Below, in pieces: positions 21,352 through 28,246 of a stretch of 64,000 nt of DNA. Where the stretch lies: positions 434,001-498,000 of the forward strand of contig MTMD02000002.1 of the NCBI GenBank assembly GCA_002010065.2. Reading direction: 5' to 3'. The position numbers and the translations under genes are program-made. This stretch comes from Candidatus Pyrohabitans jungbluthii. Its GTDB lineage: Archaea > Hydrothermarchaeota > Hydrothermarchaeia > Hydrothermarchaeales > BMS3B. Positions within the stretch are counted from its first letter, which is position 1. Every line of letters starts with the position of its first letter. The notes beneath the pieces are model-generated. The model was not told where the DNA came from, did no database searches, and worked only from the letters and a program-made list of their open reading frames with translations.

Positions 21352-22527
21352 TTACTCCTCCTTCTCCTCCCTCCTCCCCCTCTCTGCAATCTCCCGCATG
21401 TCATCGTATATCTCCCTGGAAAGCTCGTCGAAGTCGGCTATGCGCCTGCGCAGCAGCTTGAACTTCTCAAACACCCGAGAAAAGCGTTCACTCACCTCCC
21501 CGCGGTTGCGCAGCATTCTGCCCAGCTGGTACAGGTAGCGTATCCTGTCGGAGCGGCGAATGCCTGAGTAGAGCACAGTAACCTCAAGGCTGCGCTTGTC
21601 GCTCGCTGGCAGGTCACCGCCTCTAACCTCGCCCTCAAGCTGTTTCTCAATCCATAGCCTGGAGGGTATGCTCCCCAGAAAGTCCAGGTAACGCCTTGGC
21701 CCTGAGACAACCACCAGGGCGCGCTTCGCCGCCGCCAGATCGAAGCTCACCAGCGTAGCCTGAGAAGCTTTTTTGGTCAGGTGTACCACAAGCTCGGGCT
21801 TATCCAGGTTTTCCTCCCCGCCGCCAAAGAGCGAGCCTGAGCTTCGCATCTCCTTGCCGGCTAAACCTATGCTCGAGACACCCGAAAGGGTATTTATCAC
21901 GTCGGTTGCGCCCAGCACATTGCTCCCCAGCTCTTCTGGCGCACGGTATTCGCCAACCTCGAAGAGATTGTTGAAGTACCTGAAGATCTTCTCGTTAATC
22001 ACATTGAGCTGCCCCTGGACGCGGAGCCCTTCGCTCAGCGCCTCATTGTCCACAGGAAAGACGGCATCGCTCTTGGCAACTATCGGTTTAAAACTCTCTG
22101 AGAAGTTTATAAGTGCGCGGTCAACATCCTGCTCGCTTGGTAAGATGCCCAGGTAGTACACCGGCTCTGTGTAGCTCTTCTTAAGCTCATCTATAAGCAT
22201 GTCCACGCCACCGCCTGTGCCCCCGCCGAAGGCTGAGATCACAAGCAGGCAGTCGAAGGTATCCTTCACGCGGTCTATCAGCTCGACGACGTTGTACTTC
22301 TCCTCATCCAGAATCTGCCTCCCCATCTCAATGTCGTAGTTTGTGCCGTTGCCGTCAAGCAAGCGCTCGCCAAGGAGGAGCTTGTGCTTATGCGGTAATG
22401 CAGCGAGCGTAAGGGCATCGCTGTCTAAAAGCACGCCAGTGTAGGGTACCCTGGAGCGACCTTCCTTTAGAAATACGCTTGCAATCTTACATCCAGCCCT
22501 GCCGACGCCTACAATCAGCGGCTTCAA
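21352..22527 (-). CDS. Tubulin/FtsZ-superfamily GTPase, paralog 1 (CetZ-like)
   Basis: 391 aa. The GTPase domain is clear: MKPLIVGVGRAGCKIA (nucleotide-binding T1), SAFGGGTGGGVD at about 99-109 (tubulin signature loop T4), and GILPSEQDVDRALINF. The segment equivalent to the catalytic T7 loop reads VLGATDVINTL (204-214): of the DxxD/E pair used for GTP hydrolysis only the second acid is present. The C-terminus is highly charged (RRRIADFDELSREIYDDMREI, then RGRREEKEE), perhaps a coiled tail. Last gene of a four-gene operon with two paralogs and a membrane protein (gaps 9-17 bases). Cytoskeletal role in shape or division is inferred from family only. Confidence 0.85.
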   Translation of the reverse strand: MKPLIVGVGRAGCKIASVFLKEGRSRVPYTGVLLDSDALTLAALPHKHKLLLGERLLDGNGTNYDIEMGRQILDEEKYNVVELIDRVKDTFDCLLVISAFGGGTGGGVDMLIDELKKSYTEPVYYLGILPSEQDVDRALINFSESFKPIVAKSDAVFPVDNEALSEGLRVQGQLNVINEKIFRYFNNLFEVGEYRAPEELGSNVLGATDVINTLSGVSSIGLAGKEMRSSGSLFGGGEENLDKPELVVHLTKKASQATLVSFDLAAAKRALVVVSGPRRYLDFLGSIPSRLWIEKQLEGEVRGGDLPASDKRSLEVTVLYSGIRRSDRIRYLYQLGRMLRNRGEVSERFSRVFEKFKLLRRRIADFDELSREIYDDMREIAERGRREEKEE

Positions 22528-22544
22528 TTGCTTCTCTCCCTACT

Positions 22545-23363
22545 TCAGCCCAGTTCTCCCGTTCTCTGCTTAATGAAGAACACAACCAAGGCAATTACAA
22601 TCACACCAGCTATGACAAGGAGATACTTTTTGAGGCTGGACTTCTTCTCCGCCGCCTGCGCCTTCTCTTTCGCCTCCTTTATTATATCCTCAAGCAGGGC
22701 GAGGGAACTCTCGGCATTCTGCTTTGCCAGATCCACATTACCCCTGTCGTGGAGCTTCTTAGCGGTGTTTAGGGTATCCTTCGCGGTTTCAAGGCGTTTT
22801 TTGAGGCTTTCCACATCCACTCCGCGCTTCTCAAGCTCGTTAACCAGTTCCTCAGCTTCGCTCAGCTTAACCTCTGCCCTGCTTATCTCGCTGAGCGCAG
22901 CACTTATCAATTCGTTGGTCACGTCCAAGTAAAGGGAAGTCTCCTCCTGGTAACCCTTGTTGTCCTCGTCATAGTAAACATACGTGGAGACCTTGACAAC
23001 CTGTATGCGGGTGAGCTTGCTAACAGATGGAGCGTTGCCCACAAGCTTTATTGACACGCTCTTAAGCCCCTTGGGTAGAGGAATTTCAATCTCATTGCCA
23101 TAGTAGGTGTTAGCCTCGCCTCCGTCGAAGATTACGGTGGTGGTGGGGTTGTCCAGCCCTATGGTTATATTCAGCCTTGCCTCCTGAGGCTCGGGCCCAA
23201 GCTTCTTCAGCACCACATCAACTGCAACAGGGTCGCCAATCCTCGCAACCCCAACGGGTGAAACCTTCTGTTCCTCCACTGCCAGGTAGTCGGCAGATAT
23301 CTCAGCAGCTAAGGTAATACCAACGGCAACAATCATGGCAACTACAATAGGTAGAGCTTTCAT
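22545..23363 (-). CDS. Secreted, membrane-anchored coiled-coil protein of the tubulin-like operon
   Basis: 272 aa, no recognised family. Layout: signal peptide (about 1-24, MKALPIVVAMIVAVGITLAA), an extracellular beta-rich domain (25-150, with EARLNITIGLDNPTTTVIFD and IPLPKGLKSVSIKLVG), a predicted coiled coil (about 155-240, LSEAEELVNELEKRGVDVES), a transmembrane helix (about 247-265, YLLVIAGVIVIALVVFFI) and a short basic cytoplasmic tail. It sits between two tubulin-like GTPase genes with 15- and 17-base gaps, so an envelope partner or anchor for a polymer is inferred. Confidence 0.75.
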   Translation of the reverse strand: MKALPIVVAMIVAVGITLAAEISADYLAVEEQKVSPVGVARIGDPVAVDVVLKKLGPEPQEARLNITIGLDNPTTTVIFDGGEANTYYGNEIEIPLPKGLKSVSIKLVGNAPSVSKLTRIQVVKVSTYVYYDEDNKGYQEETSLYLDVTNELISAALSEISRAEVKLSEAEELVNELEKRGVDVESLKKRLETAKDTLNTAKKLHDRGNVDLAKQNAESSLALLEDIIKEAKEKAQAAEKKSSLKKYLLVIAGVIVIALVVFFIKQRTGELG

Positions 23364-23378
23364 ACATCTTTCCTCCTG

Positions 23379-24395
23379 TTACAGAGGGCTTATGTCCTCA
23401 AGAAGGTCCTCCAACTCAGGAGAAAGCCTTTTCTCCTCCTTCTCCTCCTTGACCTCATAGCTCCTGATTATATCATCTACACCAGTAATTATCATCCCAA
23501 TATTTAAATGTTTAGACCCAAAAACCTCATGAGAGGAAAAGCTCACCTCAGCCCCAAGCTTGTTCTTAACCCACTCCACAGCGAAGCCCTCGCCGTATAC
23601 GTTGCGAACATCTCCATTTATAAGCAGGAGTATCTTCTCAGGCTTTACATCCTCAAGGTTTATGTAGATGTGGTCTCGCAGCATCCTGCTTATTATATCC
23701 TTTGCCGAGATGTGCTCAGCTTTTATCCGCATAAATCCAATCGTCGCCTTCTTGCCCTCGACCTCCTTCGCCACGAGCACGGGGTCGGCGATGCTCATGA
23801 AGTTGGTTATCGTCGCGGTTATGGTTGCGTGGCTCCTACCTAGGTCTTCGCCGCGCGATGTCAGCACATTGTTGTCCAGAAAAAGCGCACCATCAACCTT
23901 GCTCACGACCTCATGGAAATACTTGCCAACATTTTTGATGTAGTGCAGCCCCTCGCCGCGAGAAGGCAGAAGAAAGATGCCAACCACAGGTACGCGATAA
24001 TACTTCCTAAGTCGCTCTGCAATCACAGGCGCACCGCCAGTGCCGGTGCCTCCTCCTAAGCCGGCAATAACAAAGAACACCTCTGGCTTCTCTGTGTTCG
24101 CCTTCCTCACAGCGTTCATCGCAAGCTCTATCTCCTCCTCCATTATCTTCCGCCCAAGCTCGACATCAGCACCCGTGCCGTGTCCCTTAGCTCTGCTCCT
24201 CCCTATTAGCACGCGGTTTTCCACAGGCAGGTGCTTTAGTGCGGAGATCGCCTCGGAGGTGTCGATGCCAACGCCTCTGAGCTCTTCCTGCTTGGAAGGA
24301 GCAAGAAGGCTGAAAAGGCTGGAGAGAGGGTCTTTTTTGTAGAAAGCATCAACTATCCTGCAGCCAGCTCCGCCTACGCCAACTAGGGAGAACAT
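23379..24395 (-). CDS. Tubulin/FtsZ-superfamily GTPase, paralog 2
   Basis: 338 aa, the shortest of three paralogs. T1 is SLVGVGGAGCRIV; signature loop AGLGGGTGTGGAPV is at about 111-124, closest of the three to canonical FtsZ; VVGIFLLPSRGEG follows. The stretch aligned with the T7 loop, SIADPVLVAKEV (about 201-212), keeps only the first acid of DxxD/E. An insertion after T1 (KKDPLSSLFSLLAPSKQ) distinguishes it. The C-terminus is an acidic tail ending LSPELEDLLEDISPL, similar to the DYLLGDIEGL ending of paralog 3, perhaps a shared binding peptide. Gaps are 9 and 15 bases, so it is co-transcribed. Confidence 0.85.
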   Translation of the reverse strand: MFSLVGVGGAGCRIVDAFYKKDPLSSLFSLLAPSKQEELRGVGIDTSEAISALKHLPVENRVLIGRSRAKGHGTGADVELGRKIMEEEIELAMNAVRKANTEKPEVFFVIAGLGGGTGTGGAPVIAERLRKYYRVPVVGIFLLPSRGEGLHYIKNVGKYFHEVVSKVDGALFLDNNVLTSRGEDLGRSHATITATITNFMSIADPVLVAKEVEGKKATIGFMRIKAEHISAKDIISRMLRDHIYINLEDVKPEKILLLINGDVRNVYGEGFAVEWVKNKLGAEVSFSSHEVFGSKHLNIGMIITGVDDIIRSYEVKEEKEEKRLSPELEDLLEDISPL

Positions 24396-24404
24396 CCACC
24401 CACC

Positions 24405-25550
24405 TTACAGGCCCTCAATATCTCCGAGAAGGTAGTCCAGGTCTCTCTCTTTCTGAGGCTCAGCCTCCGCGGTTACCTTCTTCTGAATCTCCCTGGCGCG
24501 CTCAAGCATGCGCTTCACTCGCGGAGCGTTGGTTATGCCGGCAAGAAGCACCACGCAGCCGACGTGGTTCTCCTTGGGCAGCGGATAATCGCCGCCTCTC
24601 ACTTCAGTGCCTGCGATGGTGCTCTCCAACCACTCTCTAGCCTTCTCTATACCCTTGCGGTCAAGCTGGTCCGGCGGCCCTGCGATAACAATAAGAGCCT
24701 TGCTGGCAGAGCGATAGTCGCAGGGTAAAAGCAGCCTTCCCTTAACGGCGCGCTTTGTAACAGAGAGGATGCGCGACGCCTTGCCTATCTCATACTCCTT
24801 CTTCTTGAAGAGCTTTGTCAGGAAGCCTTCCTTCTTAACTGCCTCCGAGGCGTAGCCTATGCTGCATATCCCGCCTGCCTTAAGAGTGTTTATAATCTCA
24901 CTCGCATCGACCACCATCTCGCCCACATGCTTGCGGTTCTTCACCTCACCCGCTCTGCAGAGAATGCCAAGGCGCTTTACTATCTCGTCGTTTATCCTGT
25001 CGTACGCCTGGCGAACACTCTCGCCGCTGCGCAGGAAAGCACCATTGTCTACCAAGATGGTCGCGTCTGCATGAGGAATCAGTGCTTTAAGGCTACGGGC
25101 GGCATTGAGGGTGTAGATATCGCCCTCATTCTCCGCGGGTAGTATTCCTATCGCATAAACAGGCTCGTCGTACACCTCCTTAAGGTGCCTGGTTACAACG
25201 CTTATGCTCCCGCTTCCTGTGCCACCTCCCAAGCCTGCTACGACGAAGAAGGCGTCAAAGGCGCTGACATTCAGCCTTGATATACGGTTGAGGATTATCT
25301 CTATCTCATCCTCGGCTATTCTCGCCGCCTTCTTATTATCTGCACCCACACCATGCCCCTTAACAACCGTCTCACCCAGAAGTATGCGGTCTTCCTGAGG
25401 TATGTATTGCAAACCCATGAGGTCAGAAACCGCCGTATTCACGGCTATTGCTTCAAAGGTGTGGGGTACGTGACTTTTTCTATCTCTCATTATGAATAAA
25501 TCAGCTATTTTACCTCCAGCCTGTCCTAAGCCGATTACCATCACTCTCAT
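24405..25550 (-). CDS. Tubulin/FtsZ-superfamily GTPase, paralog 3 (CetZ-like)
   Basis: 381 aa, first gene of the operon and most CetZ-like. MRVMVIGLGQAGGKIADLF at the N-terminus and AGLGGGTGSGSISVV at about 105-119 are the GTP-binding motifs; IGILPAENEGDIYTLNA is typical of CetZ. The T7-equivalent VVDASEIINTL (213-223) has both acids of DxxE, so this paralog can be expected to hydrolyse GTP. The tail ends RDLDYLLGDIEGL. The ATG has a GGAGG site 9 bases upstream and a TATA (TTATATATATC) near 25594-25605. Confidence 0.88.
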   Translation of the reverse strand: MRVMVIGLGQAGGKIADLFIMRDRKSHVPHTFEAIAVNTAVSDLMGLQYIPQEDRILLGETVVKGHGVGADNKKAARIAEDEIEIILNRISRLNVSAFDAFFVVAGLGGGTGSGSISVVTRHLKEVYDEPVYAIGILPAENEGDIYTLNAARSLKALIPHADATILVDNGAFLRSGESVRQAYDRINDEIVKRLGILCRAGEVKNRKHVGEMVVDASEIINTLKAGGICSIGYASEAVKKEGFLTKLFKKKEYEIGKASRILSVTKRAVKGRLLLPCDYRSASKALIVIAGPPDQLDRKGIEKAREWLESTIAGTEVRGGDYPLPKENHVGCVVLLAGITNAPRVKRMLERAREIQKKVTAEAEPQKERDLDYLLGDIEGL

Positions 25551-25593
25551 CTGCTCTGCCTCCAGCTCTTCCGTTTAGAGTGTACTTTTTCCC

Positions 25594-25606
25594 CTTATAT
25601 ATATCT
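25594..25606 (-). promoter_or_regulatory. TATA box of the tubulin-like operon
   Basis: Minus-strand GATATATATAAGG, about 50 bases before the ATG at 25550, predicting a 5' leader of about 20-25 bases with the GGAGG ribosome site inside it. Confidence 0.6.
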
Positions 25607-26827: not shown

Positions 26828-27475
26828 TCAGCCGCCTCCGGAGCCACCGCTACCGCCGGCGGGAACAGTTATCTTCTCTCCCTCGGAAAGGGGTACCACC
26901 TTCATCGCATCGCTGAGCATATCCAGAACCCTTGCAAGACCTTCAGGTATCTCATCCTGCACAGCATTTACTGTAATCTTCAATGTACTCCTCCTGTCGG
27001 TTTCCCTCTTGTTCGCACTCCGGTAGGTGAAAGAGCCCTTGAGCTGTACCTTGTAGAACCAGCCCCCCGCCTTTGCATTTGTGCTTATGTTCGTCTCAGT
27101 TGTGGATTCTGATGTTTCCACATCCCTTATTTGATATTCAAAGTCTATTGTCATGTCGTTGATTCGAATGAACGGTATGGGTACTATGCTCAGGAGCGGA
27201 ACCGTAAGTTTCGAAGGCACCACCTTGTGCACAGTTTCCTCTCCTTCCCTCTCCTCAATCACCCGGTCGAATTTGAACTCCACGTATCTAGCCTCGTACC
27301 CCGTTTTGTCATCTGTGGCGGTCCAGCTGGAGTCCTCCTTGAGACCCACCTCCTTTATGAAATCCACTGTGGTCTTTGCCGCCAGTGCCTGCGCCTTAAT
27401 AGCCGCCACAAGTGGCGACCCAATTACATGCTCCAATGGAAGAGCTCTCAACTCTGCCGGTATATTTGCCATCAT
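26828..27475 (-). CDS. DUF2589 family protein
   Basis: 215 aa. The start LPLEHVIGSPLVAAIKAQALAAKTTVDFIKEVG is typical of DUF2589, followed by the hydrophobic proline-rich segment LTVPLLSIVPIPFIRINDM and beta strands. A long amphipathic helix followed by a beta sandwich is predicted. The C-terminus is a Gly/Ser-rich tail (PAGGSGGSGGG). No function is established for the family. A good ribosome site (GGAGGTGAG) precedes two adjacent ATG codons; 9 bases separate it from the upstream gene. Confidence 0.75.
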   Translation of the reverse strand: MMANIPAELRALPLEHVIGSPLVAAIKAQALAAKTTVDFIKEVGLKEDSSWTATDDKTGYEARYVEFKFDRVIEEREGEETVHKVVPSKLTVPLLSIVPIPFIRINDMTIDFEYQIRDVETSESTTETNISTNAKAGGWFYKVQLKGSFTYRSANKRETDRRSTLKITVNAVQDEIPEGLARVLDMLSDAMKVVPLSEGEKITVPAGGSGGSGGG

Positions 27476-27484
27476 CTCACCTCC

Positions 27485-28246
27485 TTATTTTTCTCCCTCA
27501 GCGAGGAGCTTTGCCTTTTTTCTCCATCCGAGAATGCGTCTTTCCGAAACGCCAACAGTCTTCGCCAGCTCTTTAACACCTTCATTTGTCTTGGTTGCAG
27601 AAATCAGGTCCATAACGGTGGCAATTCCCTTTTTCTTGAGGAGGTCCGCTGTCTCGGCTCCAATACCACGTATTTTCTCCACAGGAAGAGAGCTTTCAGC
27701 TTGCTTCTTCTGTGCCCCTGTACTGGCTGATGGGGTCTTACCGCTCAGTAAGTCGACAAGAACATCCCCAAGTCTCGCCATTCCCTCAGGAACATCTCTG
27801 GTGATTTTCATCTTTACCCTTATTGTGGTTGGGTTGGATTTCCCCAGGGGAGAGAACAGTGCCAGGGTTGGTGCAAGAGAGGCACCCTTTAATGCCGATG
27901 ATATGACCGACGATTTTATAGGTTCTGTCCTCGGCTCCACTATTTCAACCCCAAACTCCACGTCCATCTCCTGAAGCTGCATTACCGGAGGAGGTACCAG
28001 TGCAAGCAGTGGTATGCTCAGCTCCAGAGGTTTTTCTTTGATCTCTGTTTTGGACTCACCAGTTTCAGGGTCAATTTTTCTCTCCTCTACTATCCTTTCG
28101 GCTCTCAGGCTGAAGGTTCTGGCGGAACCTTTCTCCATGCCAAACTCTTCAATGAAGGAGATTGTCTCCTGAAGGGCAAGATTCTGCGCCCTTATTGCAG
28201 CTTGGAGAGGCAGAGCGAAAAGCTGACCTAACTGGAGGAGTTTCAC
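27485..28246 (-). CDS. DUF2589-like protein with C-terminal DUF4332-type helix-hairpin-helix domain
   Basis: 253 aa, first gene of the cassette. Residues 1-175 follow the DUF2589 pattern (LFALPLQAAIRAQNLALQET, SIPLLALVPPPVMQLQEMDV, a run of strands). After a linker, about 185-250 (VEKIRGIGAETADLLKKKGI, VMDLISATKTNEGVKELA) is a helix-hairpin-helix module like DUF4332, which usually contacts nucleic acid or mediates protein contacts. Start is GTG 28246. A TATA-like TTTTAAATAATAG lies at 28282-28294 on the minus strand, so this is probably the operon head. Confidence 0.7.
   Translation of the reverse strand: MKLLQLGQLFALPLQAAIRAQNLALQETISFIEEFGMEKGSARTFSLRAERIVEERKIDPETGESKTEIKEKPLELSIPLLALVPPPVMQLQEMDVEFGVEIVEPRTEPIKSSVISSALKGASLAPTLALFSPLGKSNPTTIRVKMKITRDVPEGMARLGDVLVDLLSGKTPSASTGAQKKQAESSLPVEKIRGIGAETADLLKKKGIATVMDLISATKTNEGVKELAKTVGVSERRILGWRKKAKLLAEGEK

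What the first reader, a model, noticed from the sequence alone, without database searches (positions are those of the whole stretch)
21352..25550. Operon of three divergent tubulin/FtsZ-superfamily GTPases plus a membrane-anchored extracellular coiled-coil protein
Seen: four minus-strand genes with 9-17 base gaps; three carry the GGGTG(S/T/G)G tubulin loop and one has signal peptide, coiled coil and C-terminal transmembrane helix. Known: archaea use FtsZ for division and CetZ for shape. Inference: this is a dedicated multi-subunit polymer machine linked to the envelope, distinct from the FtsZ/SepF divisome; I know of no described system with this gene set.
Basis: partly seen in the sequence, partly recalled or inferred. 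Interest (0 to 1): 0.82.

Follow-up and report, generated by a model that had tools for sequence, protein, structure and literature searches.

The report
CetZ cytoskeleton operon with membrane anchor
A deep-branching group of archaea (Hydrothermarchaeota) carries a conserved four-gene operon for one ordinary and two altered members of the tubulin-like CetZ family plus a small membrane protein, related to proteins encoded beside CetZ in Archaeoglobus relatives, that probably ties the CetZ filament to the cell surface; no such anchor for CetZ turned up in the papers searched.

Summary
The four genes are real, lie at the stated coordinates and form an operon (gaps 9, 15 and 17 bp; one conserved TATA box upstream). 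The host is a Hydrothermarchaeota archaeon that also has FtsZ1, FtsZ2 and SepF elsewhere. The genes are: ZA, an ordinary CetZ (same clade as Haloferax CetZ1/2); ZB and ZC, two separate deep CetZ-side clades with altered catalytic (T7) loops; and, between them, a signal-peptide / beta-sandwich / helical-bundle / one-TM protein with a 6-9 residue cytoplasmic tail ending -ELG. The order ZA-ZB-TM-ZC recurs across the order and in a second order of the class, while flanking genes change; a third lineage has ZA-TM-ZC. New here: homologues of the membrane protein sit directly after cetZ in several Archaeoglobi and, with a ZB-like second gene, in one more archaeal class. The best reading is a dedicated CetZ polymer: ZA is the GTPase, ZB and ZC are half-active partner subunits, and the TM protein links the filament to the envelope. 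The anchor role, co-polymerisation and function (probably cell shape) are inferred, not shown. New variant of a known kind.

The parts
25594..25603 (-). archaeal TATA box (TATATATAAG), about 45 bp before the ZA start; the operon's probable promoter
   Evidence: TATATATAAG at the same place in all 7 order-level loci whose upstream sequence was printed (window, L025-L028, L030, L035); not evident in the two loci of other orders
25559..25563 (-). Shine-Dalgarno GGAGG before ZA
   Evidence: sequence
24405..25550 (-). ZA: canonical CetZ, 381 aa; intact nucleotide site (GQAGG, GGGTGSG) and T7 loop VVDASEIINTL; C-terminal tail LDYLLGDIEGL
   Evidence: Pfam CetZ_C 229 bits; PDB 4b46 (H. volcanii CetZ1) E=1e-109; careful tree 100/96 with HvCetZ1/2 and Archaeoglobi CetZ
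23379..24395 (-). ZB: divergent CetZ-side protein, 338 aa; intact GGAG and GGGTGTGG loops, 17-residue deletion before T7, catalytic acid of T7 not conserved; keeps the CetZ-type C-terminal tail ELEDLLEDISPL
   Evidence: Pfam Tubulin 104 bits, no CetZ_C; hhalign to ZA prob 100, E=3e-43; residue counts; own clade 100/100
22545..23363 (-). TM: predicted membrane anchor, 272 aa, called the CetZ-anchor candidate here
   Evidence: signal peptide, beta-sandwich 27-149, three-helix bundle 151-271 running into the TM helix; AF2 mean pLDDT 82; homologues next to cetZ in Archaeoglobi and G202
23304..23363 (-). signal peptide of TM (about residues 1-20)
   Evidence: hydrophobicity; helix 4-17
22917..23285 (-). 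extracellular beta-sandwich domain (residues 27-149)
   Evidence: AF2 model; Foldseek finds only generic beta-sandwiches
22629..22913 (-). extracellular helical bundle (residues 151-245)
   Evidence: AF2 model
22572..22628 (-). transmembrane helix (residues 246-264)
   Evidence: hydrophobicity
22548..22571 (-). cytoplasmic tail KQRTGELG-COOH; the basic stretch plus -ELG end is kept in 15 of 16 order members
21352..22527 (-). ZC: divergent CetZ-side protein, 391 aa; GxGRAG, GGGTG-GG with one residue missing, T7 with the second acid only (LGATDVINTL), charged helical C-terminal extension in place of the CetZ tail
   Evidence: CetZ_C 91 bits; hhalign to ZA prob 100, E=7e-57; own clade 100/100

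Best explanation
The operon encodes a dedicated, membrane-linked CetZ cytoskeleton. Steps SHOWN from sequence: ZA is a canonical CetZ with a complete GTPase site; ZB and ZC derive from the CetZ side of the superfamily and keep nucleotide-binding loops but have altered T7 loops, the element that completes the GTPase site of the neighbouring subunit in an FtsZ/tubulin filament; TM is a single-pass surface protein with a very short, conserved cytoplasmic tail; and a CetZ-TM pairing exists in three archaeal lineages. Steps INFERRED: ZA polymerises by GTP-driven head-to-tail assembly; ZB and ZC join or cap the ZA filament, making interfaces whose GTP is hydrolysed slowly or not at all and so setting filament polarity, length or stability; TM binds the filament (ZA, or the ZA/ZB assembly) through its basic, -ELG-ending tail and carries the link through the membrane to its extracellular beta-sandwich and helical bundle, which contact the S-layer or other envelope proteins. 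The likely output is cell shape or polarity (as for Haloferax CetZ1) rather than division, because a separate FtsZ1/FtsZ2/SepF set is present.
For: Domain and structure-sequence matches. Tree: ZA inside canonical CetZ 100/96, ZB 100/100, ZC 100/100 (quick tree). T7 and loop residues. Operon order ZA-ZB-TM-ZC in about 12 neighbourhoods of the order and in G021 of another order, ZA-TM-ZC in G022, with different flanking genes. TM found in 16 of 20 genomes of the order by sequence alone. TM homologue directly downstream of cetZ in Archaeoglobi: E down to 3e-32, gaps -4 to +11 bp, tails ending WDELK/WDELR or FRRL/FQRL; and in G202 as Z1-Z2-TM, E=3e-26. G202 Z2 groups with ZB (97/87) and also has a degenerate T7 loop. 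-ELG tail invariant in 15/16 while the protein is only 31-44% identical outside the genus. TM architecture. FtsZ1, FtsZ2 and SepF elsewhere.
Against: No interaction, filament or localisation data exist. Conserved neighbourhood suggests but does not prove a physical complex. Basic residues after a TM helix are common (positive-inside rule), so only the -ELG / WDELK ends argue for a binding motif. Most Archaeoglobaceae examined have cetZ without the TM gene, and Haloferax CetZ works without a described anchor, so TM is not universally required. The AF2 model of ZB failed (pLDDT 41), so its altered T7 region is known from alignment only; an acid aligns at the catalytic position in 6 of 17 ZB sequences. 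The ZB + G202_Z2 grouping carries a long-branch warning.
Confidence: 0.6

Rival explanations
1. ZB and ZC are regulators (capping or sequestering proteins, or nucleators) and not lattice subunits: they bind a filament end through the nucleotide face or the opposite face and control ZA assembly, while TM recruits only ZC.
For: ZB lacks a normal T7 side, so it could accept a subunit only on its nucleotide side; ZC has a charged helical extension in place of the CetZ tail and sits next to TM in the operon. ZA-TM-ZC exists without ZB in G022.
Against: The nucleotide loops are kept in both, which is also what a lattice subunit needs; nothing here separates cap from lattice.
Confidence: 0.25
2. The unit serves placement of a surface machine (archaellum or type IV pilus) and not cell shape: TM is the docking site on the envelope.
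For: CetZ genes lie beside type IV pilus genes in Thermococcales and some Halobacteria (PMC9856176); the own genome has seven archaellin-type genes.
Against: Archaellin genes lie on another contig (C8) from the operon (C2); no pilus genes were seen adjoining the operon in the listed relatives.
Confidence: 0.1
3. TM is an ordinary surface protein co-transcribed for expression reasons, with no physical link to the CetZ proteins.
For: No interaction data; helical-bundle surface proteins with a C-terminal TM are common in archaea and account for most weak hits outside the class.
Against: TM stays between ZB and ZC across the order and another order while all other neighbours change; homologues sit next to cetZ in two further lineages; conserved tail end.
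Confidence: 0.1
4. Ordinary CetZ paralogues in tandem after recent duplication, with no special system.
For: All three are CetZ-side proteins.
Against: ZB and ZC are deep, single-origin clades (100/100 each) kept in order across a whole order under purifying selection.
Confidence: 0.03

Closest known systems
CetZ (archaeal tubulin-like cell-shape proteins; H. volcanii CetZ1/CetZ2, PDB 4b46/4b45)
   Same: ZA is a member: same domains, same clade, same T7 loop and a similar C-terminal tail.
   Different: Brown and Duggin 2023 (PMC9856176) name CetZ neighbours such as pilus, cofactor and sugar genes and report few common neighbours for Archaeoglobales cetZ; no multi-CetZ operon and no membrane partner is mentioned in the passages read. 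Here there are two extra altered subunits and a TM protein.
Archaeoglobi cetZ followed by a signal-peptide/TM gene (found here)
   Same: Homologous TM protein directly after a canonical cetZ; in one family (L280) preceded by a second, altered CetZ.
   Different: Lacks ZB and ZC; tails end WDELK/WDELR or FRRL/FQRL and not ELG; the beta-sandwich was not compared.
FtsZ1/FtsZ2 with SepF (archaeal divisome)
   Same: Two tubulin-superfamily proteins with a membrane-linking partner.
   Different: SepF is a peripheral, amphipathic-helix anchor (general knowledge); here the partner is a single-pass surface protein. FtsZ1, FtsZ2 and SepF are encoded elsewhere in the same genome.
alpha/beta-tubulin, BtubA/B
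   Same: Works-like only: paired subunits of which one has lost the acid of the T7 loop (general knowledge; sequence analogy here).
   Different: Not members: ZA, ZB and ZC branch with CetZ, and solved tubulins score far below CetZ.
FtsZ-like families FtsZl1/FtsZl2 (Makarova and Koonin 2010, PMC2875224) and Pfam Tubulin_2
   Same: Superfamily members encoded with membrane proteins.
   Different: Those operons carry vWA, protein-kinase and OmpA-type genes, absent here; Tubulin_2 scores are below its cut-off.

Membership tests
CetZ (for ZA) | CetZ_C domain over the curated cut-off | tested here: met
   229 bits against 21.6
CetZ (for ZA) | branches with characterised CetZ inside the Thermococcales boundary of PMC9856176 | tested here: met
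   100/96 with HvCetZ1/2 and Archaeoglobi CetZ
CetZ (for ZA) | forms dynamic filaments and affects cell shape | not testable with these tools
   needs experiment
CetZ (for ZC) | CetZ_C domain over cut-off | tested here: met
   91 bits
CetZ (for ZC) | inside the canonical CetZ clade | tested here: not met
   own clade, outside canonical CetZ but inside the Thermococcales boundary
CetZ (for ZC) | canonical nucleotide and T7 loops | tested here: not met
   one residue missing in GGGTG(S)G; first T7 acid lost in most, second kept as D in 15/15
CetZ (for ZB) | CetZ_C domain over cut-off | tested here: not met
   no match, although profile-profile alignment to ZA is full length
CetZ (for ZB) | canonical T7 loop | tested here: not met
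   17-residue deletion, acid at position 218 in 6 of 17
CetZ (for ZB) | branches inside the Thermococcales boundary | tested here: met
   long branch
FtsZ | TIGR00065 over cut-off | tested here: not met
   81, 87 and 27 bits against 295
FtsZ-like / Tubulin_2 | PF13809 over cut-off | tested here: not met
   25.6 and 22.7 bits against 27; no hit for ZC
CetZ-adjacent membrane protein (family proposed here) | significant match to the TM profile, signal peptide plus C-terminal TM, gene directly beside a cetZ | tested here: met
   Hydrothermarchaeota, Archaeoglobi, G202; full-length match clear for f136 and G202, partial for Archaeoglobaceae

The most novel reading that the evidence does not exclude
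ZA and ZB (or ZC) form an asymmetric heteropolymer in which alternate GTP sites are not hydrolysed because one partner lacks the catalytic T7 acid, an arrangement like alpha/beta-tubulin that arose separately inside the CetZ family, and a single-pass protein couples this polymer through the membrane to the cell surface.
Probability: 0.2. Interest if true: 0.85.

Novelty: new variant of a known kind. Interest (0 to 1): 0.68.

Why it matters
How CetZ filaments, the archaea-specific shape cytoskeleton, are linked to the membrane and envelope is not answered in the papers I could read. This locus supplies a named candidate, a membrane protein family encoded next to cetZ in at least three archaeal lineages with a short conserved cytoplasmic tail, and so makes the question directly testable, also in cultured Archaeoglobus relatives. 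The altered partner subunits give a case for how a homopolymer GTPase becomes a multi-subunit filament, a step relevant to the origin of tubulin heterodimers.

Tried and rejected
(1) Tree with all seven superfamily proteins: the three window proteins are not FtsZ. (3) Fold searches with the TM model: generic beta-sandwiches only, low TM-scores, no functional clue. (4) TM profile over 393 genomes: many weak hits outside the class are helical regions of unrelated long surface proteins; only those next to cetZ were kept. (5) genome-contig scan with ZB: one true orthologue (WANX01000054.1, used for the name), the rest distant FtsZ/tubulin-type hits. (7) Pilus/archaellum link: no pilus genes seen adjoining the operon in the listed loci. 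(8) FtsZl1-type membrane-remodelling system: context genes absent, Tubulin_2 below cut-off. (9) H. volcanii CetZ1 T7 mutant literature: the Nature 2015 paper is not held, so the role of E218 rests on my own knowledge.
Full report
OBSERVATION. The four minus-strand genes exist at the given coordinates with gaps of 9, 15 and 17 bp. A TATA box TATATATAAG lies about 45 bp before the first gene in all seven order-level loci printed and is not evident in the two loci of other orders; a GGAGG ribosome site precedes the first gene in the window. The next gene downstream, a diaminopimelate decarboxylase by its sequence, starts 51 bp after the operon and is not kept beside it outside the genus in the relatives examined. 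NG86 dN/dS between the window and a congeneric genome is 0.013, 0.06, 0.10 and 0.08 for ZA, ZB, TM and ZC.

WHOSE GENOME. A genus-mate's contig is WANX01000054.1, 'Candidatus Hydrothermarchaeota archaeon'. The genome (G000) holds seven tubulin-superfamily genes: FtsZ1 and FtsZ2 on contig C8, the three of the operon, and a further pair about 105 kb away. SepF is on C14.

WHAT THE PROTEINS ARE. ZA: CetZ_C 229 bits and Tubulin 106 bits; nearest solved structure H. volcanii CetZ1 (4b46, E=1e-109). ZC: CetZ_C 91 bits. ZB: Tubulin 104 bits, no CetZ_C, but profile-profile alignment to ZA is full length at E=3e-43; ZC to ZA E=7e-57. A careful tree of 57 rows places ZA with Haloferax and Archaeoglobi CetZ (100/96); ZB and ZC are each one clade (100/100), outside canonical CetZ but inside the Thermococcales CetZ that Brown and Duggin use as the family boundary (PMC9856176).

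ACTIVE-SITE ANATOMY. At the two T7 acids (D215 and E218 in HvCetZ1 numbering) ZA has D in 18/18 and E/D in 18/18. ZC keeps D at the second in 15/15 but mostly G at the first, and lacks one residue of GGGTG(S)G. ZB keeps both nucleotide loops, has a 17-residue deletion before T7, and an acid at the second position in only 6 of 17. In FtsZ and tubulin the T7 loop of one subunit completes the GTPase site of the next (general knowledge), so ZB should bind GTP but be a poor activator of its neighbour. ZA and ZB share a C-terminal tail ([DE][LI][DE]xLLxDIxxL), partly visible in HvCetZ1 (NLETLINDDE) and Archaeoglobi CetZ (FDEDIEPL); ZC has a charged helical extension instead.

THE MEMBRANE PROTEIN. 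AF2 gives mean pLDDT 82: signal helix, ten-strand sandwich (27-149), three-helix bundle (151-271) whose last helix runs into the TM helix; this came from a two-row alignment and one of five models stands out, so treat it as provisional. The tail is 6-9 residues in nearly all; it ends -ELG in 15 of 16 order members although the protein is only 31-44% identical outside the genus, and -ERL in the two members from other orders. The sixteenth (L036) lies in a stretch that may be frameshifted.

CONSERVATION. ZA-ZB-TM-ZC order is seen in L025, L026, L027 (ZC cut by the contig end), L028-L032 and L035-L039; flanking genes are shared in the genus only, or in part. L035 has a glycosyltransferase-like ORF between TM and ZC. 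In G021, another order, the same four-gene order holds (L073); in G022 it is ZA-TM-ZC without ZB (L074), and G020 shows ZA-TM and ZC on separate contigs (L075, L076). Of the four order genomes without a TM hit, G011 and G013 have contigs that end inside or just after ZB, G009 is 62% complete, and G004 (93% complete) shows no operon.

OUTSIDE THE CLASS (found here). In G202, the only genome held of its class, Z1-Z2-TM lie in a row (L228): Z1 is canonical, Z2 has a degenerate T7 loop and groups with ZB (97/87; long-branch warning), and TM matches at E=3e-26. In Archaeoglobi (59 genomes searched; about 30 loci read), nine loci read (L252, L253, L254, L258, L260, L265, L274, L276, L205), plus L231, have a signal-peptide/TM gene at -4 to +11 bp after cetZ, matching the TM profile from E=3e-32 (family f136) to 4e-6; the weaker ones match mainly in helical regions. 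Their tails end WDELK/FDELK/WDELR or FRRL/FQRL. In family f135 (L280) a second, altered CetZ precedes the pair. Most loci without the TM gene have a ubiX-like gene (by its sequence, not tested) or no close same-strand gene after cetZ.

HOW IT LIKELY WORKS. See Best explanation: ZA is the dynamic GTPase; ZB and ZC join or cap the filament and create interfaces with slow or no hydrolysis; TM tethers the filament by its short tail and carries the link to the envelope. Steps shown: gene order, homology, site changes, TM architecture (predicted). Steps inferred: co-assembly, tail binding, S-layer contact, shape function.

LITERATURE. Brown and Duggin 2023 (PMC9856176) report CetZ in Halobacteria, Archaeoglobales, Methanomicrobiales, Methanosarcinales and Thermococcales and few shared neighbours for Archaeoglobales cetZ. 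Santana-Molina et al. 2023 (PMC9871819) list CetZ in Hydrothermarchaeota and note coiled-coil genes near some archaeal tubulin-like genes, so CetZ in this phylum is not new. In the passages I read, neither describes this operon, ZB/ZC as lineages, or the TM family; figures and supplements were not available to me.

VERDICT. Observation confirmed; interpretation partly supported; a new variant of a known kind whose most valuable part is a candidate CetZ membrane anchor.

Noticed in passing
L041:8820-12788 (G000:C2:563.8-567.8 kb): Second tubulin-superfamily locus: D (399 aa from its probable start), a 457-aa protein with two N-terminal TM helices and a long helical cytoplasmic part, and E (432 aa). 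The D-coil-E order is kept across the order (L086-L092); D and E are very long branches outside CetZ, the middle protein has no Pfam match. Divergently transcribed signal-peptide/TM genes lie beside it.
   Followed up: partly
L236-L241 (Archaeoglobi), second cetZ-like genes: Archaeoglobi carry a second CetZ-like protein of about 304-313 aa that keeps the T7 acids but has lost the GGGTG nucleotide loop, the mirror image of ZB.
   Followed up: partly
L229:6865-9430 (G202): A second canonical/degenerate CetZ pair (Z3, Z4) in divergent orientation in the same genome as Z1-Z2-TM.
   Followed up: no
L080, L081, L084: Some members of the order have an additional CetZ (ZA2) with its own branch outside the operon.
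   Followed up: no
L035:10297-11016: Glycosyltransferase-like ORF inserted between TM and ZC in G012.
   Followed up: no
window 26828-28246: Two DUF2589 proteins encoded upstream of the operon on the same strand, one with an added DUF4332 / helix-hairpin-helix region.
   Followed up: no
L032:8513-9523 and L036:524-2580: ZB is split into two ORFs in L032, and the TM and ZC ends look altered in L036: probable frameshifts in the assemblies or real decay.
   Followed up: no
G000:C8:364778-379881: Seven archaellin-family genes in the own genome.
   Followed up: no
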